Positions 2,159 through 32,606 of a stretch of DNA of 32,813 bases are shown here, one piece after another. The position numbers were made by a program, and so were the translations under genes. A model generated the notes under the pieces. The model saw only the letters and a program-made list of their open reading frames with translations, was not told where the DNA came from and searched no databases. This DNA is from an uncultured Cetobacterium sp. (lineage in GTDB: Bacteria > Fusobacteriota > Fusobacteriia > Fusobacteriales > Fusobacteriaceae): positions 1-32,813 of the forward strand of contig NZ_CAMQXC010000015.1 in the NCBI RefSeq assembly GCF_947038635.1. Reading direction: 5' to 3'. Position 1 is the first letter of the stretch, and every line of letters begins with the position of its first letter.

Positions 2159-3322
2159 ATGAAGAAATCAGTAGGAATAGTTGTAGAATATAATCCCTTT
2201 CATAATGGACATAAATATCATTGTTTAAAGGCTAGAGAGCATGGTGATATTGTTGTTGCAGTTATGAGTGGAGATTATGTCCAAAGAGGAGAACCAGCTT
2301 TTATAGATAGATGGACAAGAGCAGAGTTAGCTTTAAAAAATGGAGTTGATATAGTAGTAGAGTTACCAATATTTTATTCAACTCAAAGTGCAGAGATATT
2401 TGCTAGAGGAGCAGTAGGGATATTAAATTTAATGAATATAGAAAAAATAGTTTTTGGATCTGAAACAGGAGATGTAAAAAAATTAATTGAAAGAGGAGAT
2501 TTAGAAGAGCAAGAGGAGTTTAAAATAGAACTAAAAAAGCAATTAAAAGAGGGACATTCTTATCCAACAGCTTATTCAAATACTTTAAAAATATTGGATA
2601 AAATAGATGAACTAGATTCTAATGATATTTTAGGTGTTGAATACATTAAAGCTTTAAAGTTTTGGAAAAGTAAAATAGAACCAATTGCTATAAAGAGAGA
2701 AAAAAGTGGATATTATTCAGAAGATATAAGAGATGGGATTGCTAGCGCTACTGGTATTAGAAAAAAAATTCAATCTGGAGAAGAAATAAAAGATGTTGTA
2801 CCTAATACAACATATGAAATATTGAAAGAGAGTTTAGAAAAAAATAGTTTTGCAAAACTACAAGATTTTTACCCACTTATAAGACATAGAATACTTTTAG
2901 AAAAAGAAAGACTAGAAAGAATTCAAGATATAGAACAGGGGTATGAAAATAGAATATATGAGGCTGCTTTTTCATGTAAAGAGTTTGAAAGTTTTTTTGA
3001 GAAAATAAAAAGTAAAAGATATACTCAAGGAAGAGTTCAAAGAATTTTAATTCATATATTATTAGGAATAGAGAAGAAACAAATAGACAGAGTAAAAGAA
3101 AAAATCCCATATATAAGGGTTTTAGGATTTACTAAAGAGGGACAAAATTATTTAAAAAGATTAAAAGATGAGGAGGTTGAAGTTTTAACTTCATTAAAAA
3201 ATATACAAAAATATTTAGAAAAAGATTCACTAGATTTACTAGAGCAAAATGAGATTGCTAGTAAAATTTATGCTATGGTAAATCCATATGAAGATAGAAA
3301 AATACCGATAATTATAAAGTAG
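2159..3322 (+). CDS. tmcAL: tRNA(Met) cytidine acetate ligase TmcAL
   Basis: The family (YlbM in Bacillus subtilis) uses acetate and ATP to make N4-acetylcytidine at the wobble base of elongator tRNA-Met. The 387-residue length matches family members. The N-terminus shows the nucleotidyltransferase core GIVVEYNPFHNGH (6-18) with its HxGH-type motif, followed by MSGDYVQRGEPA (36-47) and IVFGSE, all conserved in the family. The ATG follows a GAGGTG ribosome binding site. It heads a run of six genes with short gaps or overlaps, the next one another tRNA-acting enzyme 7 bases downstream. The older annotation as an uncharacterised nucleotidyltransferase refers to the same family. Confidence 0.9.
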   Translation: MKKSVGIVVEYNPFHNGHKYHCLKAREHGDIVVAVMSGDYVQRGEPAFIDRWTRAELALKNGVDIVVELPIFYSTQSAEIFARGAVGILNLMNIEKIVFGSETGDVKKLIERGDLEEQEEFKIELKKQLKEGHSYPTAYSNTLKILDKIDELDSNDILGVEYIKALKFWKSKIEPIAIKREKSGYYSEDIRDGIASATGIRKKIQSGEEIKDVVPNTTYEILKESLEKNSFAKLQDFYPLIRHRILLEKERLERIQDIEQGYENRIYEAAFSCKEFESFFEKIKSKRYTQGRVQRILIHILLGIEKKQIDRVKEKIPYIRVLGFTKEGQNYLKRLKDEEVEVLTSLKNIQKYLEKDSLDLLEQNEIASKIYAMVNPYEDRKIPIIIK

Positions 3323-3329
3323 AGGTACT

Positions 3330-4535
3330 ATGAAAAAAATAAAATTAACAAAAGATATAAAAGATATTTTAAATATTTTAAATACTTATGGGAAAGGATA
3401 TATTGTTGGAGGTTATGTAAGAGATTATCTTCTTGGATTAAGTCCTAAAGATTGTGATTTTTGTACAGATATAGATTATCCTAAGTTAAAAGAAATTTTT
3501 AAAGATTATTCACCAAAAGAGATAGGTAAAGCTTTTGGAATAATTCAAATAATTTATAAAGGAAAGAGCTATGAGATAGCTAAATTAAGAAAAGATTTAG
3601 CATTTACATCTTTTAGAAATGTAGCCGAAGTAGAGTTTATTAGTGATATTTATGAAGATTTAAAGAGAAGAGACTTTACAGTTAACGCAATAGCTTATAA
3701 TGGAGAGAATTTAGTTTATTCATCAGAAATAGAGATGAGCGATATAAGAAATAGAGTTTTAAGATTTGTTGGCAATGGAAAAAAGAGAATAGAAGAAGAT
3801 CCTTTAAGAATACTAAGAGGTATAAGAATTGCAGGAGAAAAAGAATTATTAATATTAAAGGAGACAGAAAAAGAGATTAAAGAGTGTAAAAGTGAAATAA
3901 AAAGAGTTTCTATTGAGAGAATTCAAGATGAGTTTTTTAAGATGTTAAAAGGAGAAAATTCAAGTAATTCCTTTAGGCTTTTATATGATTTAGGAGTTTT
4001 TGAAGAGGTATTTCCCAAAACATATGAAAATATGAACTTAAATGAGGTTCTAGAAGAATTAGATAAAATAGATAGATTATTTTTATTAGAAGAATCTTTA
4101 ATATTAAAATTAGTTATTATTTTTAGTAAAAATGAAGAGGAGCTAAATATTTTAAAATTGGATAATAAAAATAAAAAATCGATTTTGAATATAATTAGAA
4201 ACTTAAAAAAAGTAAGAAATGACTGTAGTAAATATGAAATAAAGAAGATTATTATAAATATTGGAATAAAAGATTTTGAAAGTTTATTAAAGATAGAAGG
4301 TTTAAGAAATAACATATCTTTAATAAAAGAAAGATTTAATGAAATTATTGTAAATAATGAACCTATTTTTATAAAAGATTTATTGATTTCAGGAAAAGAT
4401 ATATTAGATTTGAAGATAAAAGATGGAAAAAAAATTAAGGAATTATTAGAAAAATCCTTAGATATAGTTTTAAAAAATCCTAAATTAAACCAAAAAAAAT
4501 ATTTACTAAAATTAATAGAGGAGGAAAAAATTTGA
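3330..4535 (+). CDS. cca: CCA-adding tRNA nucleotidyltransferase / poly(A) polymerase family
   Basis: Class II nucleotidyltransferase expected to build or repair the 3' CCA end of tRNAs. Visible features in order are GGYVRD (27-32), the metal-binding pair in DCDF (41-44), RRDFTVNA (113-120) and the neck motif EEDPLRILRGIRIA (155-168). A helical C-terminal half follows, rich in Lys, Glu and Ile and lacking an obvious HD phosphohydrolase domain. The 401-residue length fits bacterial CCA enzymes. It starts 7 bases after tmcAL, and its TGA overlaps the TTG start of the next gene. Class II CCA enzymes and bacterial poly(A) polymerases share these motifs. I prefer CCA addition because of the length and the tRNA-modifying neighbour. 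Confidence 0.83.
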   Translation: MKKIKLTKDIKDILNILNTYGKGYIVGGYVRDYLLGLSPKDCDFCTDIDYPKLKEIFKDYSPKEIGKAFGIIQIIYKGKSYEIAKLRKDLAFTSFRNVAEVEFISDIYEDLKRRDFTVNAIAYNGENLVYSSEIEMSDIRNRVLRFVGNGKKRIEEDPLRILRGIRIAGEKELLILKETEKEIKECKSEIKRVSIERIQDEFFKMLKGENSSNSFRLLYDLGVFEEVFPKTYENMNLNEVLEELDKIDRLFLLEESLILKLVIIFSKNEEELNILKLDNKNKKSILNIIRNLKKVRNDCSKYEIKKIIINIGIKDFESLLKIEGLRNNISLIKERFNEIIVNNEPIFIKDLLISGKDILDLKIKDGKKIKELLEKSLDIVLKNPKLNQKKYLLKLIEEEKI

Positions 4536-5824
4536 AGCGAAGAATACCTTTAGCAACACAGATATTTTATGGAGTAGGAGTAAGTTACGCTATTGTGGAT
4601 CAAATATTTGCACAGTGGATATTATATTTTTATCTTCCGCCAGAAACTTCAGGACTTAAACCATTTTTAACACCAGTTTTAATATCATTGGCATTAGCTA
4701 TTTCAAGAGTTGTAGATATGATCTCAGATCCAGTAGTGGGATATTTATCAGATAAATTTAACAGTAGATGGGGAAGAAGAATACCATTTATTGCCGTAGG
4801 AGCTATTCCATTGGCTATAACAACAGTAGCCTTTTTCTATCCTCCAATGGTAAGTGAAAAGGGAACATTTATTTATTTAGCACTTATAGGATCTTTATTT
4901 TTTACTTTTTATACAATTGTAGGAGCTCCATATAATGCTTTGATACCAGAAATTGGAGAAAATTCAGAGGAGAGATTAAATCTCTCTACGTGGCAATCAG
5001 TTTTTAGATTATTATATAGTGCAATTGCAATGATTCTACCTGGAGTTTTAATTAAGTATTTTGGTAAGGGAGATACATTAGTTGGGATTAGAGGTATGGT
5101 TATTTCATTAAGTATTTTATGTGTTTTAGGATTATATGTAACTGTTTTTTTAGTTCCAGAAAAAAAATACTCAAGACCTGTTGAACATGTTGGGGATATT
5201 AAAGAGATTTTAAAAGAGGTAGTAAAAGATAAAGATTTTAGGAATTATTTGTTAGGATTATTATTTTTCTTTGTAGGATTTAACTCTTTAAGAGCTATGA
5301 TGAACTATTATGTTGAAGATATAATGGGGTATGGAAAGGAAACGATAACTATAGCATCAGCCTTATTATTTGGAGCATCAGCTTTATTTTTTTATCCAGT
5401 AAATAAATTATCTAGAAAATTTGGATATAGAAAAATTATGCTAGGATCTTTAGTTGGATTAATAATATTGACAATAGCTTTATCATTGCTAGGAAAAGTA
5501 ATACCTGTAAAATATGGCTTCTTAATATTTGCTCTTTTAGGAATACCAATATCAGGGGCAGCATTTATATTTCCTCCAGCAATGATGAGTGATATAAGTG
5601 AAAAAATAAGTAAAAGAATAAATAATAGAATTGAAGGAGTTTGCTTTGGAATCCAAGGGTTTTTCTTAAAAATGGCATTTTTAGTATCAATAGTTGTCTT
5701 GCCATTAATGCTTGTTTTAAGAGGAAGTGGAGAGGTAACAAAGTTTGGGATATACTCATCAGCAATATTTTCAGCAGTATCTTTTGTAATCTCATATATA
5801 TTTTATTTTAAATATAATGAATAG
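4532..5824 (+). CDS. GPH-family (MFS) sugar:cation symporter
   Basis: Inner-membrane transporter of the glycoside-pentoside-hexuronide:cation symporter group, with about 12 hydrophobic spans in 430 residues. The diagnostic loop between helices 2 and 3 is clear: D62, DP at 66-67, then GYLSDKFNSRWGRRIPF (70-86). A second family-typical segment, APYNALIPEI, follows further in. The start is TTG, supported by a GAGGAGG ribosome binding site 7 bases upstream, and it overlaps the stop codon of the nucleotidyltransferase gene. The substrate cannot be deduced: no glycosidase is nearby and the gene sits among housekeeping genes. Confidence 0.85.
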   Translation: MKRRIPLATQIFYGVGVSYAIVDQIFAQWILYFYLPPETSGLKPFLTPVLISLALAISRVVDMISDPVVGYLSDKFNSRWGRRIPFIAVGAIPLAITTVAFFYPPMVSEKGTFIYLALIGSLFFTFYTIVGAPYNALIPEIGENSEERLNLSTWQSVFRLLYSAIAMILPGVLIKYFGKGDTLVGIRGMVISLSILCVLGLYVTVFLVPEKKYSRPVEHVGDIKEILKEVVKDKDFRNYLLGLLFFFVGFNSLRAMMNYYVEDIMGYGKETITIASALLFGASALFFYPVNKLSRKFGYRKIMLGSLVGLIILTIALSLLGKVIPVKYGFLIFALLGIPISGAAFIFPPAMMSDISEKISKRINNRIEGVCFGIQGFFLKMAFLVSIVVLPLMLVLRGSGEVTKFGIYSSAIFSAVSFVISYIFYFKYNE

Positions 5825-27745: not shown

Positions 27746-29659
27746 ATGAAAGTAATATTACCAAGTGGAGATATAAAAGAGTTTGAAAACAGCGTAAATA
27801 TGTTTGAAGTTGCAAAGTCAATTAGTAACTCTTTAGCTAAGAAAGCTGTTGGAGCAAAAGTAGATGGAAAGGAAGTTGATATGAGCTATGTACTAGATAG
27901 AGATGCTCATGTTGAAATAATAACTCCTGAAACTGAAGAAGGAGAAGAGATAATAAAGCACTCAACTGCGCACTTATTAGCACAAGCAGTTATTAGACTT
28001 TTCCCAGGAACTAAAGTGGCAATAGGTCCAGCAATAGAAAATGGATTCTACTACGACTTTGATCCTGAAAATCAATTTACAGATGAAGATTTAGAAAAAA
28101 TCGAAGCTGAAATGAAGAAAATTACAAAAGAGAATATAAAAGTTGAAAGAATTGAGATGACTAGAGATGAAGCTATAGAACATTTTAAAAATCTTGGTGA
28201 AACTTATAAAGTAGAGATTATTGAAAGTATTCCAGCTAATGAGATGTTAACGTTTTATAAGCAAGGAGATTTCATCGATTTATGTAGAGGACCACATGTA
28301 CCTTCTACATCATATTTAAAAGCTTTTAAATTAAAGTCAGTGGCAGGAGCTTATTGGAGAGGAGATTCTAATAACAAAATGTTACAAAGAATCTATGGAT
28401 TTGCATTTGCAACTGAGCCTCAATTAAAAGCACATTTAAAGTTTTTAGAAGAAGCTGAGAAAAGAGATCATAGAAAGTTAGGAAGAGAGCTAGAGCTATT
28501 CTTTACAAGTGATTTCGGACCAGGATTCCCATTCTTTTTACCAAATGGAATGAAGATGAGAAATGTTTTAACAGATTTATGGAGAAGAGAGCACGAGAAA
28601 GCTGGATATGAAATGATTCAAACTCCAATAATGTTAAATAAAGAGTTATGGGAAACTTCAGGACACTGGATGAATTATAGAGAAAATATGTATACATCAG
28701 AAATTGATGAGACAGAGTTTGCTATAAAACCAATGAACTGTCCAGGTGGAGTTTTAGTATATAAACATGGAATGCATTCATATAAGGATCTACCAATAAG
28801 AGCAGGAGAGTTAGGAATTGTTCATAGACATGAGTTTTCAGGAGCTCTTCATGGATTAATGAGAGTAAGAAACTTTACTCAAGATGATGCTCATATTTTT
28901 ATGACACCTGAGCAAATAGAAGATGAAATTATAGGAGTAGTAAACTTAATAGATAAATTCTATAGAGGATTATTTGGATTTGAGTATGCTATTGAGTTAT
29001 CAACAAGACCTGAAAAAGCTATTGGATCTCAAGAAATTTGGGATAAAGCTGAATCTGCATTAGAAGGAGCTTTAAAGAGACTTGGAAGAGACTACAAATT
29101 AAATCCAGGAGATGGAGCATTCTACGGACCAAAATTAGACTTTAAAATTAAAGATGCTATTGGAAGAACTTGGCAATGTGGAACTATTCAACTAGACTTT
29201 AACTTACCAGAGAGATTTGATATCTCTTATGTTGGAGAAGATGGAGAAAAGCATAGACCAGTAATGATTCATAGAGTTGTTTATGGATCTTTAGAAAGAT
29301 TTATGGGGATTTTAATAGAGCATTATGCAGGGGCATTCCCAACTTGGTTAGCACCTTGTCAAGTTAAAGTATTAACTATAAATGATGAAGTTGCTCCTTA
29401 TGCACAAGAAGTTGTAGATATGTTAAAAGCAGCTGGAATAAGAGTAGAAATAGATACAAGAGCTGAATCTATTGGATATAAGATTAGAGAAGCTAATGGA
29501 AGATATAAAGTTCCAGTTCAATTAATAATTGGAAAAAATGAAGTAGAGAATAGAGAAGTAAATGTAAGAAGATTTGGTTCTCAAAATCAAGAATCTATGT
29601 CATTAGAAAACTTTATAGATATGATAAAAGAGGAAGCAACACCAAAATTTAATAACTAA
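27746..29659 (+). CDS. thrS: Threonyl-tRNA synthetase
   Basis: Charges tRNA-Thr. The 637 residues have the usual order: a TGS domain (1-60), an editing domain with HSTAHLLAQAV (about 72-82), a class II catalytic core with PMNCPGGVLVYKH (zinc ligand Cys) and RVRNFTQDDAHIF (motif 2), and a C-terminal anticodon-binding domain from about 535. AAAGGAG precedes the ATG. Only 28 bases separate it from the lptD-like gene, so it has no T-box leader and is probably transcribed from the lptD promoter or an internal one. It ends at a strong terminator. Confidence 0.97.
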   Translation: MKVILPSGDIKEFENSVNMFEVAKSISNSLAKKAVGAKVDGKEVDMSYVLDRDAHVEIITPETEEGEEIIKHSTAHLLAQAVIRLFPGTKVAIGPAIENGFYYDFDPENQFTDEDLEKIEAEMKKITKENIKVERIEMTRDEAIEHFKNLGETYKVEIIESIPANEMLTFYKQGDFIDLCRGPHVPSTSYLKAFKLKSVAGAYWRGDSNNKMLQRIYGFAFATEPQLKAHLKFLEEAEKRDHRKLGRELELFFTSDFGPGFPFFLPNGMKMRNVLTDLWRREHEKAGYEMIQTPIMLNKELWETSGHWMNYRENMYTSEIDETEFAIKPMNCPGGVLVYKHGMHSYKDLPIRAGELGIVHRHEFSGALHGLMRVRNFTQDDAHIFMTPEQIEDEIIGVVNLIDKFYRGLFGFEYAIELSTRPEKAIGSQEIWDKAESALEGALKRLGRDYKLNPGDGAFYGPKLDFKIKDAIGRTWQCGTIQLDFNLPERFDISYVGEDGEKHRPVMIHRVVYGSLERFMGILIEHYAGAFPTWLAPCQVKVLTINDEVAPYAQEVVDMLKAAGIRVEIDTRAESIGYKIREANGRYKVPVQLIIGKNEVENREVNVRRFGSQNQESMSLENFIDMIKEEATPKFNN

Positions 29660-29711: not shown

Positions 29712-29740
29712 TTGATTTTATTTTAAAACTATGATAAAAT
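29712..29740 (+). promoter_or_regulatory. Promoter of the queuosine-precursor locus
   Basis: TTGATT (29712-29717), 17 bases, TAAAAT (29735-29740) with TG at 29732-29733. The expected start near 29747 leaves a leader of about 165 bases before the first gene. Confidence 0.75.
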
Positions 29741-29778
29741 TAAGAGTAAAATAAATATAAATCCATAATTTATATGGT

Positions 29779-29813
29779 AGATGTTCGGAAACCTCCATCT
29801 TAAAAAAACTAGG
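29779..29813 (+). promoter_or_regulatory. preQ1-I-like riboswitch aptamer
   Basis: A small stem AGATG (29779-29783) / CATCT (29796-29800) encloses a loop beginning TTC and containing AACC. An A-rich tail ending in AAAAAAACTAGG (29802-29813) follows. This is the layout of the preQ1-I aptamer: P1, a TTC-starting loop, a ligand-pairing C, and a tail AAAAAACTA that folds back into a pseudoknot. Tail AGG (29811-29813) can pair with loop CCT (29792-29794). The downstream genes (a QueL-like radical SAM protein and a YhhQ transporter) independently point to queuosine-precursor control. The call is by eye and no covariance model was run; the P2 pairing differs from the textbook examples. Confidence 0.75.
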
Positions 29814-29831
29814 CTTAAAATATTAAAATAC

Positions 29832-29855
29832 AAGGGAGAATTACACCCTTTTTTT
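29832..29855 (+). terminator. Proximal hairpin of the riboswitch expression platform
   Basis: AAGGG (29832-29836) pairs with CCCTT (29846-29850) across a nine-base loop, followed by T (29849-29855). Its left arm contains GGAG (29835-29838), which could pair instead with CTCC (29793-29796) in the aptamer loop. This would be a simple ligand-controlled switch, but it is inference. Confidence 0.6.
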
Positions 29856-29861
29856 AAATTT

Positions 29862-29887
29862 GAGCAGGAGTTTCCTGCTCTTTTTTT
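29862..29887 (+). terminator. Distal strong terminator before the radical SAM gene
   Basis: GAGCAGGA (29862-29869) pairs perfectly with TCCTGCTC (29873-29880) around a three-base loop, followed by seven T. It lies 27 bases before the downstream start codon, so the coding genes are expressed only if it is read through. Confidence 0.88.
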
Positions 29888-29914
29888 ATTTAAAAATAAA
29901 ATTAGGAGAAGAAA

Positions 29915-30619
29915 ATGGGAATTAGGTATAGTAAAATAGAAAATAAAAATAAAAGAGAGATAGTTTTATTAAAAAGTTTTCCATGTAAATATGGAAAGTG
30001 TAAATTTTGTAATTATATAGAGGATAATTCAACTGATGAACTAGAAATAGATAGAGTTAATTTAGAAACTTTACAAGAGGTAACAGGAGAGTTTGGGGCT
30101 TTAGAGGTAATAAATTCAGGTTCAGTATTTGAGTTGCCTATAAAAACATTAGAAAGAATTAGAGAAGTTGTTTATGATAAAAATATAAAATTATTATATT
30201 TTGAGATTTATTATGGATATAAAAATAGATTAGATGAAATTAGAGAATTTTTCAAAGGTGTAGATATAAGATTTAGAATGGGAATGGAAACATTTGACAA
30301 TGATTTTAGAATAAATTCATATGGAAAAAATTTTAAAATAGATATACCAGAAATAGAAGAGTTAAGTAAAAAATTATATTCAGTGTGCCTTTTAATATGT
30401 GTAAAAGGTCAAACAAAAGAGATGATAAAAAAAGATATTGAACTTGGATTAAAGTATTTTAAAAGTATAACTGTAAATATATTTATAAATAATGGAACTG
30501 AAGTTGAAAGAGATGAAGAACTTGTAAAATGGTTTGTAGAAAATTATAATCAGTTACAAGAAGATCCAAGGGTAGAACTATTAATTGATAATAAAGATTT
30601 AGGAGTTTTTGAACAATAA
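29915..30619 (+). CDS. QueL-like radical SAM protein (putative queuine lyase)
   Basis: A compact 234-residue protein with an N-terminal FeS motif CKYGKCKFC (24-32): cysteines 24, 29 and 32 spaced CX4CX2C rather than the usual CX3CX2C, with an aromatic residue before the last cysteine as in radical SAM enzymes. No clear GGE motif is seen; EVINSGSVFEL occupies that region, and RFRMGMETFDNDFR lies further on. It is followed 18 bases later by a YhhQ-family transporter and preceded by a preQ1-like riboswitch. In Clostridioides difficile a radical SAM queuine lyase (QueL) releases preQ1 from queuine for tRNA salvage. Assignment here rests on context, size and motif, with no alignment, and another radical SAM subgroup is possible. 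AGGAG site and ATG are well spaced. Confidence 0.68.
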   Translation: MGIRYSKIENKNKREIVLLKSFPCKYGKCKFCNYIEDNSTDELEIDRVNLETLQEVTGEFGALEVINSGSVFELPIKTLERIREVVYDKNIKLLYFEIYYGYKNRLDEIREFFKGVDIRFRMGMETFDNDFRINSYGKNFKIDIPEIEELSKKLYSVCLLICVKGQTKEMIKKDIELGLKYFKSITVNIFINNGTEVERDEELVKWFVENYNQLQEDPRVELLIDNKDLGVFEQ

Positions 30620-30637
30620 TTTTTGAAGGAGATAGTT

Positions 30638-31348
30638 ATGAGAAATGAAATTTTATGGGTAATAATGCTTTTTGTTAATTTTTTTAGCATAATTTTTATA
30701 TATAAAAAATTTGGAAAGTTAGGACTTTTTATTTGGGTTCCAATTAGTAGTATATTAGCGAATATTCAGGTTGTACTTTTAGTAAATCTTTTTGGATTTG
30801 AAACAACTTTGGGAAATATAATGTATGCAGGTGGATTTTTAGTGACAGATATTCTATCTGAAAATTATGGTGAAGAAGAAGCAAAAAGTGCTGTTAAATT
30901 AGGATTTGTAAGTATGATTGTAACTGCAGTAATAATGAAGTTAGCGGTGTCTTTTGTTCCAAGTACAGTTCAAGCTGGTGCAGAGAACTTTAAAAGTCTA
31001 AAAATGATATTTGACTTTATGCCTAGAATACTTTTTGCGGGACTAGTAGCTTATGGAGTTTCACAAAGACATGATGTTTGGGCTTATAAATTTTGGAAAA
31101 ATAGATTTCCAGCTAAGAAACATATATGGATAAGAAATAATTTTAGTACTTTAGTAAGTCAATTAATTGATAATCTTATTTTTACAACAATCGCTTTTGT
31201 AGGAGTTTATCCAGTTGAAGTTTTAGTAGAGATCTTTTTAGTAACTTATGTTATGAAAGTTATAGTAGCTACAATGGATACACCATTTGTTTATTTAGCT
31301 AGTTACTTAAAAGAAAATAAAAGTGTAACAGAAAAGATAATTATCTAG
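30638..31348 (+). CDS. YhhQ/VUT-family queuosine-precursor transporter
   Basis: Inner-membrane importer of the family to which E. coli YhhQ (preQ0/preQ1 uptake) belongs. From the ATG at 30638, behind AAGGAG, it has 236 residues; an in-frame TTG at 30623 lies upstream of the ribosome binding site and is rejected. About six hydrophobic helices are visible. The hallmark after helix 3 is GGFLVTDILSENYGEEEA (about 67-84), and the C-terminal half has SQLIDNLIFTTIAF and MDTPFVYLASYL. Some members carry queuine instead. Pairing with a QueL-like enzyme would suit queuine import, but the substrate is not decided by the sequence. Confidence 0.88.
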   Translation: MRNEILWVIMLFVNFFSIIFIYKKFGKLGLFIWVPISSILANIQVVLLVNLFGFETTLGNIMYAGGFLVTDILSENYGEEEAKSAVKLGFVSMIVTAVIMKLAVSFVPSTVQAGAENFKSLKMIFDFMPRILFAGLVAYGVSQRHDVWAYKFWKNRFPAKKHIWIRNNFSTLVSQLIDNLIFTTIAFVGVYPVEVLVEIFLVTYVMKVIVATMDTPFVYLASYLKENKSVTEKIII

Positions 31349-31373
31349 TGTTGAGTATTCTCAACACTTTTTT
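31347..31373 (+). terminator. Terminator after the yhhQ-like gene
   Basis: A nine-pair stem (AGTGTTGAG with CTCAACACT), a four-base loop and a T-run. It starts at the stop codon. Confidence 0.87.
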
Positions 31374-31416: not shown

Positions 31417-31451
31417 AAGTAAAATAACTAAAAATGTTTATAGGAGGAGTT

Positions 31452-32606
31452 ATGAAAGTAGTAGTAGCTATAGATTCGTTTAAAGGAAGTTTAAGCTCTT
31501 TTGAACTTGGACAAGCAATAGAAGTTGGAGTAAAAAGAGTATACCCAGAAGCTGAAGTAATAAAGGTACCGATTGCTGATGGAGGAGAGGGAACAGTAGC
31601 TTCTTTAGTTGAAGGAACAAAAGGGAATTTCGTAACAGTAATAGTAAATAATCCTCTTATGGAAAAAATTGAAGCTAGATACGGAATAATGGGAGATGGA
31701 AAAACTGCGGTAATTGAGATGGCAGAAGCATCAGGATTACCATTAATACCAGTGGAAAAAAGAAATCCTATGAAGACAACAACTTTTGGAACAGGAGAGT
31801 TAATAAAAGATGCAATATTAAAAGGATGTCGTGAATTTATAGTTGGAATAGGTGGAAGTGCTACAAATGATGCAGGGCTTGGTATGTTACAAGCTTTAGG
31901 TTACAAATTTTTAGATGAAAATAAAAAGGAGTTAGGATTTGGAGGAGAGATACTGTCTAAAGTAAGATATATAGATTCAACAAACAGCTTACCTGAATTA
32001 AAAGATTGTAAATTTTTAGTGGCTTGTGATGTTGATAATCCTTTCTATGGTCCAAAAGGTGCAGCAGAAATCTATTCAAGACAAAAAGGTGCCACTGAAA
32101 ATATGGTGAAAGAATTAGACAAGGGGTTAAAAGATCTAGCAGAAGTGATAAAGAAAGAGATGAGTGTAGATGTTTCTAATCTTTCAGGAGCTGGAGCAGC
32201 CGGTGGATTAGGAGGAGGCTTAGTAGCTTTCTTAAATGGTAAATTATCACCTGGAATAGATATGATATTAGAAAAAGTAGGTTTAGAAAAAGAATTAAGA
32301 CATGCTGATTTTGTTATAACAGGAGAAGGAAGACTCGATCATCAAACAGCTATGGGAAAAGCACCAGTGGGAGTTGCAAAAATAGCTAAAAAATTTGATA
32401 TTCCTGTAATAGCATTGGCAGGAGGATTAACAGATGATGCAGTACAAACTCATGAAAAAGGAATAGATAGTTTCTTCTCAATAATAAATTATCCAATAAC
32501 TTTAGAAGAAGCTATGAAAAAAGAGACAGCTGAAAAATTTGTAAAAGGAAATACTGAGGAGATATTTAGATTAATAAAAGTTTGTGAGAAAAAATACTCA
32601 AAATAA
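31452..32606 (+). CDS. Glycerate kinase (GarK/GlxK family)
   Basis: Phosphorylates D-glycerate, most often to 2-phosphoglycerate in this family, feeding glycolysis. The ATG at 31452 follows AGGAGGAG; the in-frame ATG at 31434 lies before that site. The product has 384 residues. Family segments are MKVVVAIDSFKGSLSS (1-16), IADGGEGT (41-48), FGTGELI, IGIGGSATNDAGLGML and ITGEGRLDHQTAMGK. It is followed 14 bases later by a GntP-type permease, as in many glycerate or sugar-acid utilisation operons. Confidence 0.93.
   Translation: MKVVVAIDSFKGSLSSFELGQAIEVGVKRVYPEAEVIKVPIADGGEGTVASLVEGTKGNFVTVIVNNPLMEKIEARYGIMGDGKTAVIEMAEASGLPLIPVEKRNPMKTTTFGTGELIKDAILKGCREFIVGIGGSATNDAGLGMLQALGYKFLDENKKELGFGGEILSKVRYIDSTNSLPELKDCKFLVACDVDNPFYGPKGAAEIYSRQKGATENMVKELDKGLKDLAEVIKKEMSVDVSNLSGAGAAGGLGGGLVAFLNGKLSPGIDMILEKVGLEKELRHADFVITGEGRLDHQTAMGKAPVGVAKIAKKFDIPVIALAGGLTDDAVQTHEKGIDSFFSIINYPITLEEAMKKETAEKFVKGNTEEIFRLIKVCEKKYSK

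What the first reader, a model, noticed from the sequence alone, without database searches (positions are those of the whole stretch)
29712..31373. Complete candidate queuosine-precursor salvage locus: preQ1-like riboswitch, QueL-like radical SAM enzyme, YhhQ transporter
One transcription unit combines a preQ1-I-like aptamer, a small radical SAM protein and a YhhQ-family importer. QueL-type conversion of queuine to preQ1 is established in gut clostridia, where uptake is by ECF transporters. Coupling to YhhQ instead would suggest queuine (or preQ1) import in this lineage with feedback from preQ1. The gene calls and leader are seen directly; the pathway is inference.
Basis: partly seen in the sequence, partly recalled or inferred. 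Interest (0 to 1): 0.78.

Follow-up and report, generated by a model that had tools for sequence, protein, structure and literature searches.

The report
PreQ1-controlled queuine salvage operon
A bacterium of the Fusobacterium group carries a small gene pair, probably switched off by the tRNA-modification precursor preQ1, that appears to import the modified base queuine and cut it back to preQ1; the enzyme is of a known kind, and its pairing with this type of importer is a variant of what is described in gut clostridia.

Summary
The finding holds. The leader is a preQ1-I aptamer (RF00522, 36.6 bits, E 8.7e-6; cut-off 39, which the same operon's leader passes in two same-genus genomes). The small protein is a QueL: best PDB match 6P78 'Queuine lyase' (E 7e-65; 51% identity, shared CX4CX2C). 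The third part is a QPTR/YhhQ transporter (TIGR00697, 215 bits).

QueL occurs in 70 of 98 genomes of the phylum. In 59 of 70 it abuts a QPTR gene, in either order; my model finds the aptamer upstream of 54 of those 59 and 0 of the other 11. QueT passes its cut-off in 0 of 98. Among 80 non-fusobacterial QueL loci, 57 have an ECF S-like neighbour, 5 QueT, 2 a QPTR.

The locus is not complete alone: the same genome has a second aptamer-led operon (QueK-like hydrolase plus another QPTR), and queA and queH; full-length queC and queF were not found; tgt falls in an assembly gap. The preQ1-I/QueK/QueL pathway is known from C. difficile; QPTR in place of an ECF transporter, split over two operons, is a variant. 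Transport substrates are inferred.

The parts
29774..29818 (+). preQ1-I riboswitch aptamer; P1 29779-29783 with 29796-29800, loop 29784-29795, A-rich stretch 29801-29808, probable pseudoknot P2 29792-29794 (CCU) with 29811-29813 (AGG)
   Evidence: RF00522 36.6 bits, E 8.7e-6; P1 paired in 105 of 105 cells of 21 fusobacterial aptamers, two pairs with changes on both sides, both in the same two sequences; P2 placed by eye
29813..29865 (+). predicted antiterminator hairpin (GCUUAAA 29813-29819 with UUUGAGC 29859-29865 and inner helices)
   Evidence: pair probabilities 0.64-0.79 for the outer helix; tail-arm pairing beats shuffles at p 0.035 here, but p <= 0.05 in only 5 of 34 leaders: inference
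29862..29880 (+). intrinsic terminator stem-loop in the leader, followed by a run of T
   Evidence: 8 pairs, 5 G-C; in 30 of 52 fusobacterial leaders against 0.1 expected from shuffles
29915..30619 (+). queL: queuine lyase-like radical SAM protein, 234 aa, CX4CX2C motif
   Evidence: PDB 6p78_A 'Queuine lyase' E 7.2e-65, 51% identity; no Pfam or NCBIfam family passes its cut-off
30638..31348 (+). QPTR/YhhQ-family queuosine precursor transporter (QPTR1), 236 aa
   Evidence: TIGR00697 215.5 bits (cut-off 50.95); PF02592 163 bits (cut-off 27.2)
31347..31368 (+). intrinsic terminator at the end of the operon

Best explanation
A two-gene queuine salvage operon under a preQ1-I riboswitch. QPTR1 brings queuine into the cell (most likely substrate, inferred); QueL cleaves it to preQ1 by radical chemistry (inferred from the solved homologue); TGT with a preQ1-type pocket inserts preQ1 into tRNA, and QueA and QueH finish queuosine. 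A second operon on another contig, with a preQ1-I-like leader, a QueK-like nucleoside hydrolase and a paralogous transporter QPTR2, would feed the same route from queuosine nucleoside. When preQ1 is plentiful it binds the aptamer, its P2 strand is taken from the antiterminator, the terminator at 29862-29880 forms and transcription stops before queL. Shown by computation: the aptamer, protein families, operon arrangement and their conservation. Inferred: catalysis, transport substrates, direction of the switch.
For: Aptamer. QueL. QPTR. Adjacency in 59 of 70 QueL genomes in both gene orders, 29 QueL-first and 30 QPTR-first. Aptamer upstream of 54 of 59 adjacent and 0 of 11 non-adjacent (15 of the 54 were in the model's training set). 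All 70 QueL genomes have a QPTR, against 15 of the 28 without QueL. No QueT over cut-off in 98 genomes. No full-length QueC or QueF in the window's genome, QueA and QueH present. TGT of sister genome G010 carries GGLAVG, the preQ1-type pocket by PMC11570991 (passages). QueK-like enzyme 54-56% identical to its best clostridial QueK matches, 34% to RihA. Terminators in 30 of 52 leaders against 0.1 expected.
Against: The window's aptamer is under Rfam's cut-off, and the leader of the QueK-like operon had no RF00522 match up to E 1; it was found by eye, by pattern and by a model trained on it. Characterised E. coli YhhQ takes preQ0 and preQ1, not queuine (passages), and QPTR1 is only 30% identical to it. 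15 genomes of the phylum have QPTR without QueL, 8 of them lacking full-length QueC as well or more, so QPTR can serve without QueL. 15 of 70 QueL genomes also have full-length QueC, so salvage is not always the only source. The antiterminator is not general: 5 of 34 leaders at p <= 0.05, and in the unconstrained fold of the window leader the terminator stem has low probability (about 0.2). TGT, QueD and QueE are untested in this very assembly.
Confidence: 0.72

Rival explanations
1. QPTR1 imports preQ1, as E. coli YhhQ does, and QueL works only on queuine made inside the cell by the QueK-like enzyme or brought by QPTR2. The operon is then a collection of preQ1 sources rather than an import-and-convert pair.
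For: E. coli YhhQ specificity (passages); 15 genomes have QPTR without QueL; in G018-G021 and G023 the aptamer stays with a lone QPTR while QueL lies elsewhere without one.
Against: QPTR and QueL are adjacent in both gene orders in 59 of 70 genomes; genomes G009, G012 and G013 keep queL-QPTR1 but have no QueK-like match at E <= 1e-60, so their QueL would lack a queuine source unless QPTR1 brings it.
Confidence: 0.2
2. The radical SAM protein acts on a different substrate and only resembles QueL.
For: No Pfam or NCBIfam family, not even the general radical SAM one, passes its cut-off; activity cannot be tested here.
Against: 51% identity over the 225 aligned residues of 6P78, invariant cysteines in 8 of 8 aligned sequences including 6P78, and preQ1 aptamer plus queuosine-precursor transporter beside it.
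Confidence: 0.04
3. The leader is a degenerate or differently tuned aptamer that no longer senses preQ1.
For: Score below the curated cut-off.
Against: Same operon's leader over the cut-off in G009 and G013; paired changes in P1 among relatives; a class I aptamer of F. nucleatum binds preQ1 with KD 283 nM (PMC3905878, passages; I did not check that it is the aptamer of this operon).
Confidence: 0.04

Closest known systems
C. difficile preQ1-I riboswitch > queK-qrtT-queL operon (PMC11477304, passages; primary paper Yuan et al. 2019 PNAS not held)
   Same: preQ1-I control, queuosine hydrolase, queuine lyase, salvage to preQ1 for TGT
   Different: Transporter is QPTR/YhhQ and not an ECF S component; QueK-like and QueL are in two separately controlled operons, each with its own QPTR paralogue
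QueL, PDB 6P78 'Queuine lyase'
   Same: 51% identity, CX4CX2C, length
   Different: Comes with a different transporter family; activity here untested
QPTR/YhhQ (COG1738): E. coli takes preQ0/preQ1, Chlamydia queuine (PMC11570991 and PMC11130926, passages)
   Same: Family TIGR00697/PF02592, control by preQ1-I riboswitch is known for yhhQ (PMC11625349, passages)
   Different: Coupled to QueL; 30% identical to E. coli YhhQ; substrate unknown
preQ1-I riboswitches (RF00522) in Fusobacteriota
   Same: Phylum already listed among holders (PMC11625349, PMC11477304, passages)
   Different: Genes under control (queL-QPTR, QueK-like-QPTR) were not named for Fusobacteriota in the passages I saw

Membership tests
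preQ1-I riboswitch (RF00522) | significant covariance-model match at the leader | tested here: met
   36.6 bits, E 8.7e-6; below the curated 39 bits in the window, above it in the same operon of G009 and G013
preQ1-I riboswitch (RF00522) | P1 hairpin with A-rich tail and P2 pseudoknot | tested here: inconclusive
   P1 supported by paired changes at two pairs in two sequences; P2 pairing assigned by eye, and not evident by eye in genus g14
preQ1-I riboswitch (RF00522) | binds preQ1 | not testable with these tools
   needs in-line probing or calorimetry
QueL queuine lyase | full-length similarity to the characterised enzyme | tested here: met
   6p78_A, residues 4-231 of 234, E 7.2e-65
QueL queuine lyase | CX4CX2C cluster motif | tested here: met
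   C24, C29, C32 invariant in 12 of 12 fusobacterial sequences and in 6P78
QueL queuine lyase | turns queuine into preQ1 | not testable with these tools
   needs anaerobic enzyme assay
QPTR/YhhQ | match to TIGR00697 / PF02592 | tested here: met
   215.5 and 163 bits, both over cut-off
QPTR/YhhQ | transports a queuosine precursor | not testable with these tools
   needs uptake assay
C. difficile-type queK-qrtT-queL operon | ECF S component beside queL | tested here: not met
   the neighbour is a QPTR; QueT over cut-off in 0 of 98 genomes; QrtT-type S components were not searched genome-wide
C. difficile-type queK-qrtT-queL operon | queK in the same operon as queL | tested here: not met
   QueK-like gene is on contig C23 with QPTR2, queL on C15

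The most novel reading that the evidence does not exclude
Two QPTR paralogues in one cell are specialised for different salvage substrates: QPTR1, beside QueL, for the base queuine, and QPTR2, beside the QueK-like hydrolase, for the nucleoside queuosine. Together under two preQ1 riboswitches they replace the single broad ECF-QrtT transporter of clostridia. QPTR2 forms its own clade (10 rows, 99/99 support), and sister genomes keep one or the other: G007, G008 and G011 have no QPTR1 and no aptamer at queL but keep QueK-like-QPTR2; G009, G012 and G013 keep queL-QPTR1 but have no QueK-like match at E <= 1e-60. No QPTR that prefers queuosine nucleoside is described in the passages I read.
Probability: 0.3. 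Interest if true: 0.58.

Novelty: new variant of a known kind. Interest (0 to 1): 0.42.

Why it matters
It shows the indirect queuine route in most sampled genomes of a phylum of mouth and gut bacteria (70 of 98), with a different importer than in clostridia, and explains on a gene level why papers list Fusobacterium and Leptotrichia as consumers and not makers of queuosine precursors (PMC11130926, PMC6593275, passages). The two paralogous importers, each tied to one enzyme, make the open question of what decides QPTR substrate choice directly testable. Queuine is also a micronutrient of the host.

Tried and rejected
Rejected: a de novo queuosine route in this genome (no full-length QueC, no QueF over cut-off); real loss of tgt (contig C155 starts 8 bases past where tgt ends in G010, and nothing strong matches the 4.9 kb before it); a phage or plasmid origin of queL (no phage match; one plasmid-collection match, on a 2.1 Mb record that is probably a chromosome).

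Led nowhere or weak: a general antiterminator rule for all leaders (5 of 34 at p <= 0.05, 11 of 34 at p <= 0.2); promoter scan (no more than chance); Rfam search of the QueK-like leader (no RF00522 match up to E 1). The first alignment of aptamers mixed strands and was not used; misread the gene order where the genes overlap, and one search gives the corrected order (the counts of adjacent genomes agree, 59). RihB and a clostridial tree were not used for the QueK comparison: RihB was fetched but not compared.

Not done: structure prediction, QueD/QueE searches, a genome-wide search for QrtT-type S components, and any search of the metagenome collection. The 2019 PNAS paper that describes QueL is not in the library, so it may already show fusobacterial queL-yhhQ clusters. 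Paper searches made.

Full report
Observation. They lie between thrS (27746-29659) and a glycerate kinase gene (31434 or 31443-32606; PF02595). Terminator-like sites close the thrS unit and the operon, and a third sits in the leader.

Leader. RF00522 matches 29774-29818 with 36.6 bits and E 8.7e-6. This is below the curated 39 bits, and the window has no match at that threshold. Over the phylum, 21 of 98 genomes have an RF00522 match at E <= 0.001 under strict filters and 5 pass the cut-off: G053, G047, G013, G048, G009. In G009 and G013, of the window's genus, it is the leader of the same operon. In 21 aligned fusobacterial aptamers P1 pairs in 105 of 105 cells, and two of its five pairs change on both sides, in the same two sequences of one genus; three pairs never vary and say nothing. 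I built a covariance model from these 21. The pseudoknot P2 was assigned by eye.

QueL. phmmer of the ORF against the PDB gives 6p78_A, 'Queuine lyase', E 7.2e-65; the only other match up to E 1 is a chance-level uroporphyrinogen decarboxylase at 0.35. Identity to the 6P78 stretch is 51%. The CX4CX2C motif is invariant in 12 fusobacterial sequences. No Pfam or NCBIfam family passes, including the general radical SAM model.

Transporter. TIGR00697 'queuosine precursor transporter' 215.5 bits, PF02592 163 bits. It is 30% identical to E. coli YhhQ and 52% to the second QPTR of the same genome.

Conservation in the phylum. QueL: 70 of 98 genomes. QPTR: 85 of 98, that is all 70 with QueL and 15 of the 28 without. 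In 59 of 70 the two genes are adjacent on one strand with gaps of at most 355 bases: 29 QueL-first, all in family f1, and 30 QPTR-first (22 in family f4, 7 in genus g14 of f1, and G097). My model finds an aptamer (E <= 0.06 over 425 kb) upstream of 54 of the 59 and of none of the 11 non-adjacent QueL genes; 15 of those 54 were in its training set. The five without are G022, G052, G064, G083 and G097. In G018, G019, G020, G021, G023 and G046, where QueL is elsewhere, the aptamer matches at the lone QPTR. Two gene orders with one pairing argue for function and not for inheritance of one arrangement alone. The named record Fusobacterium vincentii NZ_CP084075.1 has the same trio: QueL 71% identical, QPTR overlapping its end, aptamer E 3.4e-8; it is the only name that ties this unnamed set to Fusobacteriota, with thrS at 75%.

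Rest of the pathway in the window's genome. QueA (453 bits) and QueH (218 bits) are present. QueC has only partial matches of up to 31.7 bits; the 27 genomes with a full-length QueC score 195 bits or more. QueF: 22.6 bits, under the 27.3 cut-off. QueT: none; over cut-off in 0 of 98. QueD, QueE and QrtT-type components were not searched. TGT is in 92 of 98 genomes but not in this assembly, which is 93.9% complete. DNA of the tgt neighbourhood of G010 matches contig C155 from 8 bases after the end of tgt onward, and nothing strong before it, so two further genes are missing with tgt (I read them as apt and relA by eye). I take this as an assembly gap. TGT of G010 has GGLAVG, the pocket of preQ1-inserting enzymes according to PMC11570991 (passages). 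15 of the 70 QueL genomes also have full-length QueC.

Second operon. On contig C23 of the same genome a nucleoside hydrolase (PF01156, 286 bits) is followed directly by a second QPTR. Its leader (L054 1060-1115) has the same P1 and A-rich tail and scores 45.1 bits with my model, which was trained on it; Rfam's own model did not report it up to E 1. The hydrolase is 54-56% identical to its four best matches among hydrolases lying beside clostridial queL genes and 34% to E. coli RihA, 30% to RihC. 14 of 98 genomes have this hydrolase at E <= 1e-60; in 10 of the 14 a QPTR lies next to it and in those 10 the pattern search shows the aptamer upstream. Sister genomes keep one operon or both: G007, G008, G011 lack QPTR1 and have queL directly behind thrS or nearly so, without aptamer, but keep the QueK-like pair; G009, G012, G013 have the reverse.

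Outside the phylum. A scan of named genomes gave 282 relatives of which the best 80 were kept, ranked by likeness to the clostridial QueL, so the sample leans away from distant relatives. Within 3.5 kb, 57 of 80 have a protein of one cluster, 43 a hydrolase cluster, 5 a third cluster, and 12 none of these. One member of each was identified: ECF S component-like (NF045596, 82.9 bits, under its cut-off of 180, and no Pfam match), PF01156, and QueT PF06177. A QPTR lies in 2 of 80 loci, both from spirochaetes and on the opposite strand. My aptamer model matches at E <= 0.07 in 58 of 80, on the QueL strand. So riboswitch control of QueL is general and known; the QPTR pairing is what sets this phylum apart.

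Mechanism. In the window leader the outer antiterminator helix (29813-29819 with 29859-29865) has probabilities 0.64-0.79 and takes up the first four bases of the terminator stem; forcing the ligand-bound aptamer lets the terminator form. The overlap with P2 is one base, and the unconstrained fold gives the terminator only about 0.2. Terminators follow the aptamer in 30 of 52 leaders against 0.1 expected from shuffles, but the tail-arm pairing exceeds shuffles at p <= 0.05 in 5 of 34 only. Transcriptional OFF control is likely here; most leaders without a terminator are from family f4, which may use another platform.

Known and new. C. difficile has a preQ1-I riboswitch before queK-qrtT-queL (PMC11477304, passages). 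A review states that queL, queK and yhhQ are under preQ1 riboswitches in bacteria (PMC12519234, passages). Fusobacteria are described as auxotrophs or consumers of queuosine precursors (PMC6593275, PMC11130926, passages). In paper searches and the passages read I found no fusobacterial QueL-QPTR pairing, but the primary QueL paper is not held. I therefore file it as a new variant of a known kind.

Noticed in passing
L062 (G047:C67) 2868-5238: In a sister of genus g11 the preQ1 aptamer precedes a de novo queF-queC-queD-queE-like run, while G048 and G049 of the same genus have it before salvage genes: the same switch with swapped cargo.
   Followed up: partly
G015:C1:165212-165921: queL is split into two reading frames in this complete-looking genome.
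   Followed up: no
G027:C1:1138246-1138739: The QPTR gene beside queL is broken, with a stop inside one piece.
   Followed up: no
G049:C56:326-1298: The QueK-like gene is split into two overlapping frames.
   Followed up: no
L039, L041, L047-L050 (genus g14): Aptamers with a CCAAAG tail in which I could see no P2 pairing by eye, although RF00522 gives about 35.7 bits.
   Followed up: no
NZ_CP084075.1 (L216): A 2.1 Mb Fusobacterium vincentii record carrying thrS and queL is listed as a plasmid in PLSDB with one annotated feature; probably a mislabelled chromosome.
   Followed up: no
L103, L127: Two spirochaete genomes have queL and a QPTR side by side on opposite strands, the only QPTR neighbours among the 80 loci outside the phylum.
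   Followed up: no
G054, G059, G060, G061: QueK-like hydrolases 51-53% identical to the window genome's, not next to a QPTR.
   Followed up: no
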